DNA from: Candidatus Rhabdochlamydia oedothoracis
GTDB taxonomy: Bacteria; Chlamydiota; Chlamydiia; Chlamydiales; Rhabdochlamydiaceae
Reading direction: 5' to 3'
DNA length: 64,000 nucleotides
Assembly: GCF_019453995.1 (NCBI RefSeq)
Contig: NZ_CP075587.1
Coordinates: 248,001-312,000, forward strand
The notes under the pieces were generated by a model. The model saw only the letters and a program-made list of their open reading frames with translations. It was not told the DNA's origin and made no database searches. The translations under genes and the position numbers were made by a program. The number at the start of each line of letters is the position of its first letter. Position 1 is the stretch's first letter. Of this stretch, positions 1,681-33,214 are shown one piece after another.

Positions 1681-1935
1681 TAGTATAGAAGCATTTTCAC
1701 TACATAAAAACCATTGGAGGATATTCTGGAAAAAAATTTGCAAAGAGTGTGCAGGAGATATTAGGATGTATATTAGAAATAGCCAAAAGAAATACACTTC
1801 ATACTTTTACAGTTATTCCCAAAAGATGGGTTGTAGAGCGTTCTTTTGCGTGGATAGAAAAATGTCGCAGGCTATGGAAAAATTGCGAAAGAAAACTACA
1901 TACAAGCCTGAATATGGTGGTTCTTGCTTTAAAAG
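1681..1935 (+). mobile_element. IS5 (IS1031-like) 3' fragment
   Basis: This matches the 3' part of the reference copy at 33305-34171, from the sequence around ITDRNG to RKLHTSLNMVVLA. An internal deletion after ACCATT removes the LFGAKNVLADG segment. The fragment abuts the IS630-A right end at a TA, as expected if IS630-A inserted into this IS5. Confidence 0.75.
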
Positions 1936-2023
1936 TTGGCAAAAAAAACCAAAAAGTTTTAAAATTAATCCACTCCATCACACTAATGAAAGCTTTAAAA
2001 TAAGGGGTTATGCAAGAAATCTA

Positions 2024-2665
2024 ATGATAGGCCCTGACCCAAACGCCATCTACCCCATTAAGGACTATACGAAGCTCGTCTTCCTAAAAAACTTCGTCAA
2101 GGCCACCAATATTATCGTAGGTGAATATACCTATTTCGATGACAGGCGCCATGGTCCAGAGAAATTTGAAGAATATAACGTCCTCTATAACTACGATTTC
2201 TCAAAAGTTAAACTCATCATCGGGAAATTCTGCGCCATTGCAGCAGAAACAAAATTCATCATGACGGGAGATCACAAGCTCGATGCGATCAGTACATATC
2301 CATTTCCCATCTTTCAGAAAGGGTGGGAAAACGTTTTCAATATATTTGATCTTCCTGTAAAAGGGGACATCGTTGTTGGGAACGATGTTTGGTTTGGATA
2401 TGATGTGCTTGTCAAGGGGGGTGTAAAGATCGGAAATGGAGCGATTATCGCTACGCGCGCAGTCGTCGTCAAAGATGTTCCTCCCTATGCAATCGTAGCA
2501 GGCAACCCTGCAAAAATTGTCAAAATGCGCTTCGATGACAAGACCATCGAACGACTTCTACGCATCTCTTGGTGGAACTGGGATATTGAAAAAATTAATC
2601 GTCACCTTTCCTTGATCTGCAATCTTGATGTGGATCGATTAGAAGCGGCTGGCTTGGAGGAGTAG
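2024..2665 (+). CDS. Vat/xenobiotic O-acetyltransferase (left-handed beta-helix)
   Basis: This 213-residue protein starts MIGPDPNAIYPI and has the family's landmarks in order: IIVGEYTYFDD (about 30-40), IIGKFCAIA, the catalytic-region MTGDHKLDAISTYPF, then hexapeptide repeats such as VVGNDVWFGYDVLVKGGVKI and the closing IVAGNPAKIV. The family transfers acetyl from acetyl-CoA to a hydroxyl of streptogramin A, chloramphenicol or similar compounds, and its length of about 210 residues fits. The frame is open further upstream, but that part is transposon sequence. The ATG at 2024 follows the IS end TGCAAGAAATCTA directly. The gene looks richer in G+C than its neighbours, which suggests acquisition. 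The family is sure; the substrate is not known. Confidence 0.87.
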   Translation: MIGPDPNAIYPIKDYTKLVFLKNFVKATNIIVGEYTYFDDRRHGPEKFEEYNVLYNYDFSKVKLIIGKFCAIAAETKFIMTGDHKLDAISTYPFPIFQKGWENVFNIFDLPVKGDIVVGNDVWFGYDVLVKGGVKIGNGAIIATRAVVVKDVPPYAIVAGNPAKIVKMRFDDKTIERLLRISWWNWDIEKINRHLSLICNLDVDRLEAAGLEE

Positions 2666-3713: not shown

Positions 3714-3844
3714 TATACATGCCATAATTGCACACAAAGAAGGGGTTGCTCCTTAAACGGAGTAGGTTAAACTCTCCAATATAAACGAGATTTTTTCAAA
3801 TCTCAAAACCGCTCATTAAAGAGCAAAAAAATGAGGAGCAACCC

Positions 3845-4876
3845 ATGAAGCATTATATTGGATTAGATGTATCAATGAAAAGAACTTTTATCTGTGTATT
3901 AAATGAACAAGGTAAGATTGTCCATGAAGGTTCAGAAAAAACAGATCCTGATTTACTAGCAGATGATTTTTCCAAAAGAGATTTTCAAGAAATCGTTGTT
4001 GGCTTTGAAAGTGGATGTTTATCTCATTACCTAGTCACAGGATTTAGAAAAAGAGCTATAGATCCCCTATGTATGGATGCAAGGAAGCTGAGTACGATTC
4101 TTGCTTTGAAAATAAATAAGACAGACAAAAATGATGCACGAGGAATCGCAGAAGCTCTTCGATCAGGTATGTATACACGAGTACACTGTAAGCCCCAAGA
4201 TTCAGTAGAAAAAAGCATTTTGTTAGTTTCCAGAAGAGCGCTAATTAAACAGCAAACGCAGTTAAAAAATACTGTAAGGGGCTTGCTTAAAAGTTACGGA
4301 ATACGATTGGGATCTGTGGGATCCAAAAGATTTTCGTCTGTGGTTGTAAAGCAGATAGAAAAACAGGAAAAAAGTATTGTTCTGAGCATAACCTCTCTAT
4401 TAAATACCTTTGATAAGGTAGTTGAGGAAGTAGAAAAACTGGATAAAGAAATGCTTAAGCTGGTCAGTCAAGATAAAGAAGTACAACGGCTTATGACAAT
4501 CCCTGGCGTAGGACCTGTAACAGCATTAACCTATAAAACAGAAATTTTTGATCCCACTCGTTTTAACGATTCTAAATCAGTAGGAGCCTATCTTGGTATG
4601 ACGCCTAAACAGTATGCCTCCGGAGAGGTGCAAAGACAGGGAAGAATTTCAAAATGTGGATCCAGTGAACTTAGATCTCTATTAGTTGAAGCCGGAATAG
4701 TAATGCTGACACGAAGTAAGAAATGGAGCAAGCTAAAAGCTTGGGGATTAAAAATCATGAGAAAAAAAGGAATGAAGAAAGCCGCCTTAGCAGTAGGTAG
4801 AAAGTTATCCGTAATTATGCATAAGATGCTGATTGAACAAAAAGAATTTATTTACGGTGAGCCAAAGGCAGCTTAA
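3845..4876 (+). CDS. IS110 family transposase (DEDD recombinase)
   Basis: The protein has 343 residues. The N-terminal RuvC-like DEDD domain starts MKHYIGLDVSMK and continues with GFESGCLSHYLV and KTDKNDARGIAEALRSG. The C-terminal Transposase_20 domain has the helix-hairpin-helix RLMTIPGVGPVTALT and the serine-region GRISKCGSSELRSLLVEAG. The family excises and integrates its element through a circular intermediate, guided in characterised members by an element-encoded bridge RNA. The start follows a good GAGGAGCAACCC leader. The gene is intact and near-identical to the second copy, so it may be active. Confidence 0.93.
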   Translation: MKHYIGLDVSMKRTFICVLNEQGKIVHEGSEKTDPDLLADDFSKRDFQEIVVGFESGCLSHYLVTGFRKRAIDPLCMDARKLSTILALKINKTDKNDARGIAEALRSGMYTRVHCKPQDSVEKSILLVSRRALIKQQTQLKNTVRGLLKSYGIRLGSVGSKRFSSVVVKQIEKQEKSIVLSITSLLNTFDKVVEEVEKLDKEMLKLVSQDKEVQRLMTIPGVGPVTALTYKTEIFDPTRFNDSKSVGAYLGMTPKQYASGEVQRQGRISKCGSSELRSLLVEAGIVMLTRSKKWSKLKAWGLKIMRKKGMKKAALAVGRKLSVIMHKMLIEQKEFIYGEPKAA

Positions 4877-13791: not shown

Positions 13792-13922
13792 TATACATGC
13801 CATAATTGCACACAAAGAAGGGGTTGCTCCTTAAACGGAGTAGGTTAAACTCTCCAATATAAACGAGATTTTTTCAAATCTCAAAACCGCTCATTAAAGA
13901 GCAAAAAAATGAGGAGCAACCT

Positions 13923-14954
13923 ATGAAGCATTATATTGGATTAGATGTATCAATGAAAAGAACTTTTATCTGTATATTAAATGAACAAGGTAAGATTGTC
14001 CATGAAGGTTCAGAAAAAACAGATCCTGATTTACTAGCAGATTATTTTTCCAAAAGAGATTTTCAAGAAATCGTTGTTGGCTTTGAAAGTGGATGTTTAT
14101 CTCATTACCTAGTCACAGGATTTAGAAAAAGAGCTATAGATCCCCTATGTATGGATGCAAGGAAGCTGAGTACGATTCTTGCTTTGAAAATAAATAAGAC
14201 AGACAAAAATGATGCACGAGGAATCGCAGAAGCCCTTCGATCAGGTATGTATACACGAGTACACTGTAAGCCCCAAGATTCAGTAGAAAAAAGCATTTTG
14301 TTAGTTTCCAGAAGAGCGCTAATTAAACAGCAAACGCAGTTAAAAAATACTGTAAGGGGCTTGCTTAAAAGTTACGGAATACGATTGGGATCTGTGGGAT
14401 CCAAAAGATTTTCGTCTGTGGTTGTAAAGCAGATAGAAAAACAGGAAAAAAGTATTGTTCTGAGCATAACCTCTCTATTAAATACCTTTGATAAGGTAGT
14501 TGAGGAAGTAGAAAAACTGGATAAAGAAATGCTTAAGCTGGTCAGTCAAGATAAAGAAGTACAACGGCTTATGACAATCCCTGGCGTAGGACCTGTAACA
14601 GCATTAACCTATAAAACAGAAATTTTTGATCCCACTCGTTTTAACGATTCTAAATCAGTAGGAGCCTATCTTGGTATGACGCCTAAACAGTATGCCTCCG
14701 GAGAGGTGCAAAGACAGGGAAGAATTTCAAAATGTGGATCCAGTGAACTTAGATCTCTATTAGTTGAAGCCGGAATAGTAATGCTGACACGAAGTAAGAA
14801 ATGGAGCAAGCTAAAAGCTTGGGGATTAAAAATCATGAGAAAAAAAGGAATGAAGAAAGCCGCCTTAGCAGTAGGTAGAAAGTTATCCGTAATTATGCAT
14901 AAGATGCTGATTGAACAAAAAGAATTTATTTACGGTGAGCCAAAGGCAGCTTAA
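13923..14954 (+). CDS. IS110 family transposase, copy 2
   Basis: The 343-residue protein is identical to the one at 3845-4876 except for Ile instead of Val in FICILNEQG and Tyr instead of Asp in LLADYFSKRD. All DEDD and C-terminal motifs are retained, with GLDVS, KNDARG, IPGVGPVTA and SKCGSSELR. It is intact and potentially active. Confidence 0.92.
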   Translation: MKHYIGLDVSMKRTFICILNEQGKIVHEGSEKTDPDLLADYFSKRDFQEIVVGFESGCLSHYLVTGFRKRAIDPLCMDARKLSTILALKINKTDKNDARGIAEALRSGMYTRVHCKPQDSVEKSILLVSRRALIKQQTQLKNTVRGLLKSYGIRLGSVGSKRFSSVVVKQIEKQEKSIVLSITSLLNTFDKVVEEVEKLDKEMLKLVSQDKEVQRLMTIPGVGPVTALTYKTEIFDPTRFNDSKSVGAYLGMTPKQYASGEVQRQGRISKCGSSELRSLLVEAGIVMLTRSKKWSKLKAWGLKIMRKKGMKKAALAVGRKLSVIMHKMLIEQKEFIYGEPKAA

Positions 14955-15293: not shown

Positions 15294-16111
15294 CTCGTTT
15301 GTTTTTAAATTAAGATTTAACTAAGCAAAATTTCCTAGATAAAAGAGGTTGCAGTTCTTCCCGATATTTAGGAATATTTTCAAAAAAAGCACAAATTGCC
15401 TTCTTAAAATCTAAGAATTTTTCATAATATCGATTATTGCGGACTTTTTTATTCATGAATCGCCAAAGGCGTTCAATCAGATTGAGATCGGGAGAATAAG
15501 GAGGCAAGAATTTGATTTCTACTCTGGATGTTTTTAGGTAATTTGCAACGATTTTTGACCTATAGTAGGCAGCGTTATCGCATATAACCACGATTCTTTG
15601 TGCAAAAGGATACTTTTCTTCCAATTTTTTAAACAAATCAAGAGTAGATTGCGCATTGATAGAGTCGGAAGAAAGAGTTGTAACTTCTAAGCGCTTTACA
15701 TCTAAGGCTCCATTGATATTGATACGTTTACGTCCTGTATTTGTTAGCAATATAGCCTTAGATCCTTTTTCATACCATCCATAAGAGGGTTTGGAATTGT
15801 GTTGAGGATGAACCCCATCTAAATAAAGCAGTTGATCTGTTTGAGCGAGTTCTTTTTCTAGATTTTGCAATTCTTGTGAAAAAAGCTCTTTAGCTTCCTC
15901 ATTCACTTTTCCAGGAATCAGCTTAGGCTTTTTATAGGTAAAGTTTAACCGATGCAATAAAGAAACCATAGCTGATGGTGTATAACATATTCCAAAGTGG
16001 TCTTTGGCAAAATTGACAACTTGTTTAGCTGAACTGGGAGCTTCTTCTTTTACATATAGAAAATTTCAATGAATTTAGTGTTTGAAAAGTCTTTTTTCTA
16101 ATGCATTTCAG
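15294..16111 (-). pseudogene. IS630-B copy with internal deletion
   Basis: On the minus strand an open region (down to 15310) encodes the DDE part of a second IS630-type transposase: LLYLDGVHPQHN, IVVICDNAAYYRSK and LPPYSPDLNLIERLWRFMNK. The N-terminal HTH is missing. At about 16062 the sequence jumps straight from the left-end non-coding DNA into VKEEAPSSAKQV. The element end at 15294 abuts IS110 copy 2. Confidence 0.8.
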
Positions 16112-22334: not shown

Positions 22335-22390
22335 AAATGTAATAGACAAGACTTAAATTGACACTTAGTGGTAAATAGCAAAGAAAAACA

Positions 22391-22429
22391 GCTTTTGCAA
22401 CTAAGGCATCATGCCTTAGTTGCAAAAGC
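22391..22429. promoter_or_regulatory. Perfect 19-bp palindrome in the IS481 leader
   Basis: The arm GCTTTTGCAACTAAGGCAT is followed by one base and its exact reverse complement, 20 nt before the transposase start. The degenerate IS481 copy at 32895-33214 keeps the hairpin, with two paired changes that preserve base pairing. This suggests a selected structure, for example an RNA hairpin that blocks read-through expression, or a protein-binding site. Confidence 0.65.
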
Positions 22430-22448
22430 AGAACCAAAGTGGTAATTT

Positions 22449-23543
22449 ATGAATATAGCAATAGAGAGAAAAGTGATAAAAAATAAACTAGGTCTTTTAA
22501 AATTAGCAAAAACGCTAGGAAATGTATCTCAAGCATGTAAGCACATGGGATATTCAAGAGAAAGCTTTTATACATACAAAGAGCTTTATGAAAAAGGCGG
22601 AGAAGCCGCATTACAAGAAATCTCTAGAAGGAAACCCTGCCCTAAAAATAGAGTGGAAGAAAAAATAGAAACTAGCGTAGTTGCATTTGCTATAGAAAAA
22701 CCTGCATATGGACAGCTCCGAGTTTCCAATGAGATGAAAAAGAAGGGAATTCTTGTTTCTCCTGGAGGGGTCAGATCGATATGGCTAAGGCATGATCTAG
22801 AAACATGTAAGAAGAGACTAAAGGCGTTAGAAGCAAAAGCAGCTCAAGATCACTTGATCTTTACAGAAGATTAATTAAGAGCGCTTGAAAAAGCTAAAGA
22901 AGAAAAAGAAGCGCATGGTGAAATAGAAACACAACACCCTGGCTATCTTGTTGCACAAGACACCTATTATGTAGGCACTATTAAAGGTGTGGGAAGGATC
23001 TATCAGCAAACAGTGATTGACACCTATAGTAAAGTTGCTTTTACTAAGTTGTATGACAGAAAAAATGCACTAGTAGCAGCAGAAGTATTAAATGATAAAA
23101 CAATACCCTGGTTTGAAGAACAAGAGTTAAGAGTGTTAAGAATACTTAACCGTAGAGGGACAGAGTACTGTGGGAGTCGGGAATACCATGAATATGAGCT
23201 CTATCTTACAATAGAAGATATTGAACATACTCGAACAAAGGCAAGGCATCCTCAAACCAACGGAATCTGTGAGAAGTTTCCTCAGACGATTCAAAATGAA
23301 TTTTCTGCATCAGCATTTAGGCAAAAAGTGTATCATAGTCTAGAAGAACTGCAAATGGATTTGGATAAATGGGTAAAAGAGTACAATGAAGAGCGAGTCC
23401 ATTCTGGGAAATATTGTTATGGGAAGACACCATGGCAAACATTTCAGGATGCAAAGCATCTAGCACAAATGAAAAAGCTAGACACATTACACCAAATTGA
23501 CACTGTCAATGAAGTGCTGTCTGTCAACTCAAGTTCTGTCTAG
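22449..23543 (+). pseudogene. IS481 transposase with in-frame stop
   Basis: One continuous frame is interrupted only by TAA at 22872-22874, where LIFTED should continue into LRALEKA. The N-terminal HTH ([20 protein letters not shown]) and rve integrase domain are recognisable. The first catalytic Asp is in VAQDTYYVG and the Glu in QTNGICEKF. The second catalytic Asp, normally in a DRGTEYCG-type motif, is replaced (NRRGTEYCG). Two independent lesions make this copy inactive. Confidence 0.85.
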
Positions 23544-23557
23544 GACATATAAAAAAT

Positions 23558-32894: not shown

Positions 32895-33214
32895 AGCGAC
32901 TTTTCTTAGGGCAGGGTTTCCTTCTAGAGATTTCTTGTAATGCGGCTTATCCGCCTTTTTCATAAAGCTCTTTGTATGTATAAAAGCTTTCTCTTGAATA
33001 TCCCATGTGCTTACATGCTTGAGATACATTTCCTAACGTTTTTGCTAATTTTAAAAGACCTAGTTTATTTTTTATCACTTTTCTCTCTATTGCTATATTC
33101 AAAATTACCACTTTGCTATTTGTTTATGCAACTACGGCATCACGTCGCAGTTGCATAAGCTGTTTTTCTTTGCTATTTACCACTAAGTGTCAATTTAAGT
33201 CTTGTCTATTACAA
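32895..33214 (-). mobile_element. IS481 5' remnant
   Basis: The minus-strand left terminus (near 33214), leader hairpin (about 33122-33160) and transposase N-terminus of IS481 are present. They match the copy at 22338 up to about the codons for ISRRKPCPK. The hairpin differs by compensatory changes. The rest of the element is gone. Confidence 0.75.

What the first reader, a model, noticed from the sequence alone, without database searches (positions are those of the whole stretch)
22391..22429. IS481 leader hairpin kept by compensatory changes
The 19-bp perfect palindrome is also present in the decayed copy (33122-33160), where T:A became A:T and A:T became C:G at paired positions. Paired changes suggest selection on structure, perhaps an RNA hairpin stopping read-through expression of the transposase.
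Basis: seen in the sequence. Interest (0 to 1): 0.55.

Follow-up and report, generated by a model that had tools for sequence, protein, structure and literature searches.

The report
Transposon leader RNA hides ribosome site
The palindrome is the tip of a predicted RNA fold in front of a jumping gene's transposase, whose base pairs the element's own end with the ribosome-binding site; a good share of distant relatives show similar folds built from different letters, which probably helps to keep the jumping gene quiet.

Summary
The palindrome is real: 19-nt perfect arms with one centre base at 22391-22429, in the leader of a broken IS481-family element (about 22338-23547). The copy at 33122-33160 carries both named paired changes but is not a perfect palindrome (15 Watson-Crick pairs, 2 G:U, 2 mismatches). 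In 14 copies of the same genome, paired changes exceed chance. That alone does not prove selection: template switching gives the same pattern, and the centre base flips C to G as it predicts. The stronger evidence lies outside the finding. In the predicted fold the terminal inverted repeat pairs with the transposase ribosome-binding site, and the palindrome is the apical part. Of 32 leaders (window included), with mostly unrelated sequences, 13 show significant end-to-RBS pairing and 27 fold at z below -2; of 29 control gene starts, 2 and 5 do. An ISSod13-like subgroup shows basal-stem covariation abutting the start codon. No sense-strand terminator in 24 leaders, so translational masking fits better than transcription stopping. 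Rfam's 'sRNA' psRNA2 matches the antisense of that leader in 17 of 20 loci. A known kind of control in a variant I found no paper on; function untested.

The parts
22338..23547 (+). IS481-family element with broken transposase; ends TGTAATAGACAA... and ...CTAGGACA, 3 nt after the stop of the gene before it
   Evidence: alignments used 22338-23546
22338..22363 (+). left terminal inverted repeat, core GACTTAAATTGACA (GACTTAATCTGACA in many relatives)
22354..22372 (+). 5' arm of the basal stem, starting inside the terminal repeat
   Evidence: RNAfold pairs; 13-nt inverted repeat 22354-22366 / 22437-22449, 85% complementary
22391..22429 (+). apical hairpin: the palindrome of the finding
22433..22449 (+). 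3' arm of the basal stem: region of the ribosome-binding site up to the A of the start codon
22449..22874 (+). transposase N-terminal part (helix-turn-helix), ends at a stop codon
22989..23543 (+). transposase C-terminal part (integrase core), open frame after the stop
22381..22429 (-). the same hairpin read on the minus strand, followed by TGTTTTTCTT: terminator-like for antisense transcripts
   Evidence: 1 found, 0.1 expected in shuffles
22452..22479 (-). weak promoter-like match TTATCA-16-TATATT with TG before the second hexamer; would start an antisense RNA over the leader
   Evidence: 1 found, 0.5 expected; p=0.03
33122..33160 (-). homologous hairpin in the decayed copy; both named paired changes, plus 2 G:U and 2 mismatches

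Best explanation
The palindrome is the apical hairpin of a leader RNA that keeps the transposase poorly translated. In a transcript that enters the element from outside, the inner part of the left terminal inverted repeat and the letters just after it (22354-22372) pair with the ribosome-binding region up to the start codon (22433-22449); the 19-bp hairpin between them brings the two arms together. A transcript that begins downstream of the repeat would lack the 5' arm and leave the ribosome site open. Shown by computation: the fold, its excess over shuffles, and its recurrence with different letters in a share of distant relatives. Inferred: that it lowers translation, and that read-through transcripts are the target. 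The element's own start site is unknown. The paired changes in the hairpin probably arose partly by template switching and survived because the fold was useful while the element was active.
For: Window leader: MFE -37.6, z -6.8; RBS (-14..+3) unpaired 0.21 against 0.50 in shuffles (p 0.007); pairing mass between the first 24 nt and the RBS 13.3 against 1.5 (p 0.003); unpaired rises to 0.65 without the first 24 nt. In 32 leaders (window and L049 from the own genome, 30 from relatives): first-24-nt:RBS pairing p<=0.05 in 13 of 32 (11 of 25 hand-picked dissimilar ones, Fisher 2e-9), RBS masking p<=0.05 in 9 of 32, z below -2 in 27 of 32, median z -3.20; in the 25, mean RBS unpaired goes from 0.33 to 0.53 without the first 24 nt. 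Control gene starts of the window, two IS110 transposases removed: arm p<=0.05 in 2 of 29, RBS masking in 0 of 29, z below -2 in 5 of 29, median -0.16. Short leaders can keep the basal stem without a long hairpin: in L084 all 9 letters of CTGACACTT pair with AAGTGTCAG before ATG. ISSod13-like group: 34 leaders give 9 distinct basal arm pairs abutting the start codon, 64 of 72 cells paired against 51.1 mean, 61 maximum in 5000 shuffles, with compensatory types at several positions. Own-genome covariation.
Against: No sense promoter was found in the window copy, so that native transcripts lack the 5' arm is unproven; a plausible promoter starting after the arm appears only in L084 (TAGACA-17-TATAAT) and weakly in L058 of 24 leaders. 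No significant first-24-nt:RBS pairing in 19 of 32 leaders, among them L049 (p 0.116, same clade as the 33-kb copy), L101, L085, L096, L100; the whole leader of the 33-kb copy folds only at z -1.50. In the ISSod13-like group the 5' arm lies inside the repeat, not in it. An RNAduplex test alone is weaker: p 0.060 for the window leader, p<=0.05 in 13 of 28 representatives. RNAalifold found no consensus on the raw alignment A2. In one search the arm register was fitted to the observed data and not to the shuffles, 19 of 34 leaders share one arm pair, and L179, L210 and L201 fit poorly. The own-genome basal stem hardly varies: no compensatory pair. The number of double-changed pairs (3) is not unusual in its shuffles (180 of 500). 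Two ordinary gene starts of 29 also reach arm p<=0.05.
Confidence: 0.58

Rival explanations
1. Mutation only: template switching between the palindrome arms keeps the arms complementary and flips the centre; in this genus the hairpin has no function.
For: 4 complementary double events in a near-perfect palindrome with a 1-nt spacer; centre base G instead of C in L002, L015 and the sub-clade of L006/L009/L011/L008; the mechanism is published (PMC8794818; PMC8604942, start of abstract).
Against: Does not explain the element-end:RBS stem, relatives with unrelated hairpins at the same place, or shared changes never breaking pairs while private ones do (0 of 6 against 6 of 10; small numbers).
Confidence: 0.2
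2. Antisense control: the minus strand makes a short RNA across the RBS, ending at the hairpin's U-run, which pairs with the transposase mRNA, as RNA-OUT does in IS10 (recalled).
For: Terminator-like site on the minus strand and a weak promoter-like match inside the first codons; Rfam psRNA2, called an sRNA, lies antisense to the ISSod13-like leader in 17 of 20 loci.
Against: The promoter-like match is near chance (1 against 0.5); a strong antisense terminator in only 1 of 24 leaders, weak ones in 3 more; a structured leader scores on both strands, so psRNA2's strand is not proof.
Confidence: 0.14
3. Transcription stop: the hairpin is an intrinsic terminator or attenuator for read-through transcripts.
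For: Very stable stem.
Against: No U-run after the stem on the sense strand; sense terminators in 0 of 24 leaders.
Confidence: 0.04
4. DNA-level site: a palindromic operator or transposase-binding site read by a dimer.
For: Perfect symmetry in the window copy; several relatives' RBS regions resemble an inverted piece of the terminal repeat (TGTCAG).
Against: Relatives have unrelated hairpin sequences, many with larger loops, not a shared operator; in L058, L061 and the ISSod13-like group pairing extends into letters outside the repeat.
Confidence: 0.04

Closest known systems
Translational masking of IS10, IS50 and IS200 transposase against transcripts from outside
   Same: A leader structure masks the ribosome site of a transposase; in IS10/IS50 the element end supplies the masking strand (recalled, no call). 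The IS200 case, one stem-loop stopping impinging transcripts and one hiding the RBS, is stated in PMC3196728 (passages).
   Different: Other transposase families; here an IS481 subgroup, often with a long apical hairpin, and no terminator on the sense strand in the leaders checked.
ISPpu9 5'-UTR control (PMC8450116, passages)
   Same: Transposase translation limited by 5'-UTR secondary structure in an IS.
   Different: Different element with a long leader and two small RNAs; no masking by the terminal repeat described in the passages read.
Rfam RF02349 psRNA2 ('Proteobacterial sRNA')
   Same: Its outer and inner stems are the basal and apical stems of ISSod13-like leaders, read on the opposite strand, and it includes the terminal repeat (alignment to L109).
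   Different: Filed as a free sRNA on the antisense strand. The window's own leader does not match it (in one search none of the 14 control genomes rang either).
ISSod13 (name from the annotation of Escherichia phage RCS47)
   Same: Its transposase is 87% identical to L108's, and its leader carries the same GAGAGTTACC / GGTAACTCTC arms before the ATG.
   Different: About 60% identical to the Neochlamydia protein; basal arm inside the repeat instead of in it.
ISCaa12, IS481 element of Amoebophilus asiaticus (PMC3196728, table passage)
   Same: IS481 family, 1210 bp, in an amoeba symbiont.
   Different: Its leader was not examined here; no leader structure for it appears in the passages read.

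Membership tests
IS481 family | transposase matches the IS481 model over its length | tested here: inconclusive
   The two halves of the broken gene match NF033577 at 1.6e-25 and 3.3e-42, 90.2 and 144.9 bits, each below the whole-protein cut-off of 224; IS481 is the best family for both. Many relatives are annotated IS481.
IS481 family | terminal inverted repeats beginning TGT and ending ACA | tested here: met
   Left TGTAATAGACAA..., right ...CTAGGACA; that this defines the family is recalled.
Translational masking against read-through (IS10/IS50 type) | element-end sequence pairs with the transposase ribosome site | tested here: met
   Window leader p 0.003; 13 of 32 leaders p<=0.05 against 2 of 29 control gene starts, by prediction only.
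Translational masking against read-through (IS10/IS50 type) | native transcript starts after the masking arm | tested here: inconclusive
   No sense promoter in the window copy; suitable ones in L084 and weakly L058 of 24 leaders.
Translational masking against read-through (IS10/IS50 type) | translation measured to fall in transcripts that carry the arm | not testable with these tools
   Needs reporter assays.
Intrinsic terminator on the sense strand | G+C stem followed by a U-run | tested here: not met
   Only a minus-strand site; 0 of 24 leaders.
Rfam psRNA2 | score over the gathering cut-off | tested here: not met
   Window leader: no match at E<=1; own genome none. Relatives L109, L192, L194 and L197 pass 65 bits, 4 of 20 loci scanned.

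The most novel reading that the evidence does not exclude
A whole IS481 subgroup, from Chlamydiota to Alpha-, Beta- and Gammaproteobacteria, uses its own terminal repeat, or an arm just inside it, as an anti-ribosome-site strand closed by a fast-changing hairpin. The end that the transposase cuts would thus double as the switch that silences transcripts arriving from outside, and Rfam's psRNA2 would be the mirror image of this leader, not a free-standing host sRNA.
Probability: 0.45. Interest if true: 0.55.

Novelty: new variant of a known kind. Interest (0 to 1): 0.42.

Why it matters
IS481 is a large family (recalled), and the paper listings that I saw showed no paper on RNA control of its transposase leader. 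If true, a general [12 protein letters not shown] mechanism of insertion sequences would extend to it, with a testable two-arm design. An Rfam family annotated as a bacterial sRNA would be re-read as a transposon leader, which matters for anyone who annotates sRNAs with Rfam. The case also separates two causes of 'compensatory' changes, template switching and selection, which sequence readers easily confuse.

Tried and rejected
Rejected: sense-strand terminator. Rejected: an Rfam family for the window leader (the only hit at E<=1, a microRNA model at E 0.18, is the palindrome itself). Considered: the hairpin as an inserted element with a target duplication, because L010/L021/L053 lack it exactly between AAATAGCAAAG repeats. 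I prefer a deletion, since those repeats flank the hairpin in L006, L009 and L011, and L010 shares the LAQALG variant with L011 of that clade; L006, L008 and L009 read LAKTLG. No transposase frame open along the whole gene was seen in the own-genome copies: one search listed frames holding marker peptides in 22 loci, and L005 and L002 were listed again. So these copies look like fossils, and private changes in them carry little information on selection.

What led nowhere: RNAalifold on the raw 34-row alignment gave no pair; a first register of the basal arms was wrong and was replaced (then 90); a viral-contig scan with the Mycetohabitans protein found no relative and one with the Neochlamydia protein 2; genome contigs gave 6 loci; antisense promoters (Fisher 0.044, 3 of 24) and sense promoters (Fisher 0.19, 2 of 24) are not convincing; the origin of psRNA2 in print was not found (PMC6337395 only lists the name in a table).

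Rows dropped and choices made by hand. One search kept candidates with a left repeat (at least 11 of 14 letters): 43 loci; 15 loci were printed as 'no IR' and left out, and weak or late-starting matches were skipped. I took 32 of the 43; the 11 left out are eight other own-genome loci (among them L053 without hairpin and L051, the 33-kb copy), L056, L090 and L040. Start codons were set by hand. Representatives (25 of 32, 28 of 40, 24) were chosen by eye for dissimilarity after one search had been seen. A1 holds 14 of 18 own-genome left ends; L010, L018, L020 and L022 have the hairpin deleted, interrupted or cut off; one search scored 40 of 64 candidates, so more copies may exist. A2 holds 34 of 36 distinct leaders (without L170 and L113); one search kept 80 of 91. 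One search scanned 20 of the 34. The events were counted by hand without L008, whose leader is rearranged. The control genes are 31 of the 51 frames (ATG starts, one overlapping frame left out).

Full report
What was claimed and what is there. The window position 22391-22429 is a 39-nt palindrome, 19-nt arms around a single C. It lies 53 nt inside the left end of an IS481-family element (about 22338-23547), and 19 nt separate it from the ATG of the transposase. The gene is broken by a stop after codon 141; both halves match the IS481 model best. The genome is one of the phylum Chlamydiota: genome G044 of the same genus has contigs of the same lengths (40,122 and 37,231) as records titled Chlamydiae bacterium.

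Are the paired changes more than chance? The own genome holds at least 18 places with the element's left end, by my count; 14 keep all or most of the hairpin. On their alignment the structure gives a covariation score of 0.131 against 0.073 in shuffles (0 of 500 reach it); sliding the partners drops it to 0.036 or less. Three pairs of columns change on both sides: U-A to A-U, G-C to U-A and to A-U, A-U to C-G. The number of such pairs alone is not unusual in the shuffles (3 against 2.2, 180 of 500); the number of cells (11 against 3.0) and the score are. My hand count, without L008, is 4 complementary double events and about 12 one-sided ones; random placement of these substitutions gave 4 or more doubles once in 300,000 trials.

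Selection or mutation? Template switching between palindrome arms restores complementarity in one event and can invert the spacer (PMC8794818, abstract and start of introduction; PMC8604942, start of abstract). The single centre base is C or G in all 14 rows: G in L002, L015, L006, L009, L011 and L008. So a mutational share is likely. For selection speaks that changes shared by two or more copies never break a pair (0 of 6), whereas private ones do in 6 of 10 (p 0.026); the numbers are small and the sorting is mine.

The larger structure. Folding the leader from the terminal repeat to the first codons pairs 22354-22372 with 22433-22449, the ribosome-binding region up to the start codon; the palindrome forms the apical stem. 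Repeat finding independently reports the inverted pair 22354-22366 / 22437-22449. The ribosome region is 0.21 unpaired in the full leader, 0.50 in shuffles, and 0.65 when the first 24 nt are cut off.

Relatives. IS481 transposases at about 64-73% identity over the N-terminal part occur in Neochlamydia and in Alpha-, Beta- and Gammaproteobacteria. I took 32 of 43 leaders with a recognisable left repeat, the window's and L049 included. In the folds the longer ones carry a hairpin between repeat and ribosome site, with different letters: Scalindua (L088), Bradyrhizobium (L094, L098), Microvirga (L099, L103), Cupriavidus (L092) and Mycetohabitans (L091) are examples. Shorter ones have no long hairpin but can keep the basal stem, most plainly L084, CTGACACTT with AAGTGTCAG directly before ATG. 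Element-end:RBS pairing has p<=0.05 in 13 of 32, RBS masking in 9 of 32, and fold z is below -2 in 27 of 32. The other 19 of 32 have no significant end pairing, L049 and L101 among them. A cruder duplex test gives p<=0.05 in 13 of 28 representatives but 0.060 for the window leader.

Control. The same test on 31 gene starts of the window gave arm pairing p<=0.05 in 4, RBS masking in 0 and a median z of -0.23. Two of them, at 3845 and 13923, are IS110 transposases with strongly folded leaders (z -6.2); without these two the counts are 2 of 29, 0 of 29, z below -2 in 5 of 29 and median -0.16. At least one more, at 15969, is an IS630 transposase, and 21 of the 31 proteins were not checked.

The ISSod13-like group. 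A scan of viral contigs with the Klebsiella relative L108 kept 80 loci of 91. The annotated ISSod13 transposase of Escherichia phage RCS47 is 87% identical to L108's and has the same leader arms, hence the name. Thirty-four distinct leaders (without L170 and L113) have a basal arm abutting the start codon: GAGAGTTA/TAACTCTC in 19 of them, then GAAAGTTA/TAACTTTC, GAGAGTTT/AAACTCTC, CGGGGTTA/TAACCCCG, TGGGGTTA/TAACCCCA and others. Nine distinct arm pairs: 64 of 72 cells paired, against a mean of 51.1 and a maximum of 61 in 5000 shuffles (the register was fitted to the observed pairs only). L179, L210 and L201 fit poorly.

Rfam. psRNA2 (RF02349) matches the antisense of these leaders: 144.6 bits in L109 (cut-off 65), its outer stem being the basal stem, its inner stem the apical one, and its middle the terminal repeat. 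Of 20 ISSod13-like loci scanned (of the 34), 17 match at E<=0.01 just upstream of the start codon, 4 of them over the cut-off; L107, L201 and L179 do not. So psRNA2 looks like an IS481 leader seen from the other strand. The window's leader and genome show no match.

Which mechanism? There is no terminator on the sense strand in the window leader or in any of 24 leaders. Masking of translation is therefore the better reading. That it acts chiefly on transcripts from outside, as recalled for IS10 and IS50, is an inference: only L084 and, weakly, L058 show a sense promoter that would start after the arm. An antisense RNA is a real rival in this genus, because the minus strand has a terminator-like hairpin with a T-run and a weak promoter-like match inside the first codons.

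Literature. PMC3196728 (passages) describes IS200's two stem-loops, one ending impinging transcripts and one hiding the ribosome site; PMC8450116 (passages) describes 5'-UTR control in ISPpu9; PMC4265352 and PMC5006887 (passages) concern IS50 and IS10 under Hfq. Two papers on IS481 in Bordetella, PMC3053399 and PMC11774165 (the second on an antisense RNA driven by an IS element), were seen only in listings. Searches for IS481 with leader or translation terms returned none or listings, cut at 20 papers, without one whose title or abstract start names an IS481 leader structure; most subscription papers are not held there.

Verdict. A real palindrome, a partly right interpretation, and a larger, better supported structure around it. 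A variant of a known kind of transposon self-control; the function is untested.

Noticed in passing
L109:490-687 and 16 other ISSod13-like loci: Rfam psRNA2 (RF02349), annotated as a proteobacterial sRNA, lies antisense over the transposase leader and contains the IS terminal repeat; 17 of 20 loci match.
   Followed up: partly
window 3746-3845 and 13824-13923: Two IS110-family transposase genes share a strongly folded leader (z -6.2), whose first letters TTGCTCCT pair with AGGAGCAA at the ribosome site; it may hold the element's bridge RNA (recalled).
   Followed up: no
L010 / L021 / L053 (own genome, C1 about 1524329): A copy lacks the whole hairpin, cleanly between AAATAGCAAAG repeats, probably a deletion.
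   Followed up: partly
window 22381-22479, minus strand: Promoter-like match and terminator-like hairpin that could make a short antisense RNA over the transposase ribosome site.
   Followed up: partly
L198, L184, L109 and others, apical loop of ISSod13-like leaders: The apical loop keeps a GGTGTCGAATC-like stretch, in part complementary to the terminal repeat GACAC in some rows; could be a pseudoknot or a protein site.
   Followed up: no
window 22989-23543 and L002: The window and L003 copies read NRRGTE and EKFPQ where L002 reads TDRGTE and ERFHQ, so dead copies seem to have been multiplied by another copy's transposase.
   Followed up: no
L018, L020, L046: Three left ends stop or are interrupted inside the hairpin near CAACTAAG; in L020 the letters that follow resemble the end of the element at window 33308.
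   Followed up: no
window 1766-2665: The frame resembles Vat-type streptogramin acetyltransferases in NCBIfam (254.5 bits, below the cut-off of 300); probably a related xenobiotic acetyltransferase, function not shown.
   Followed up: no
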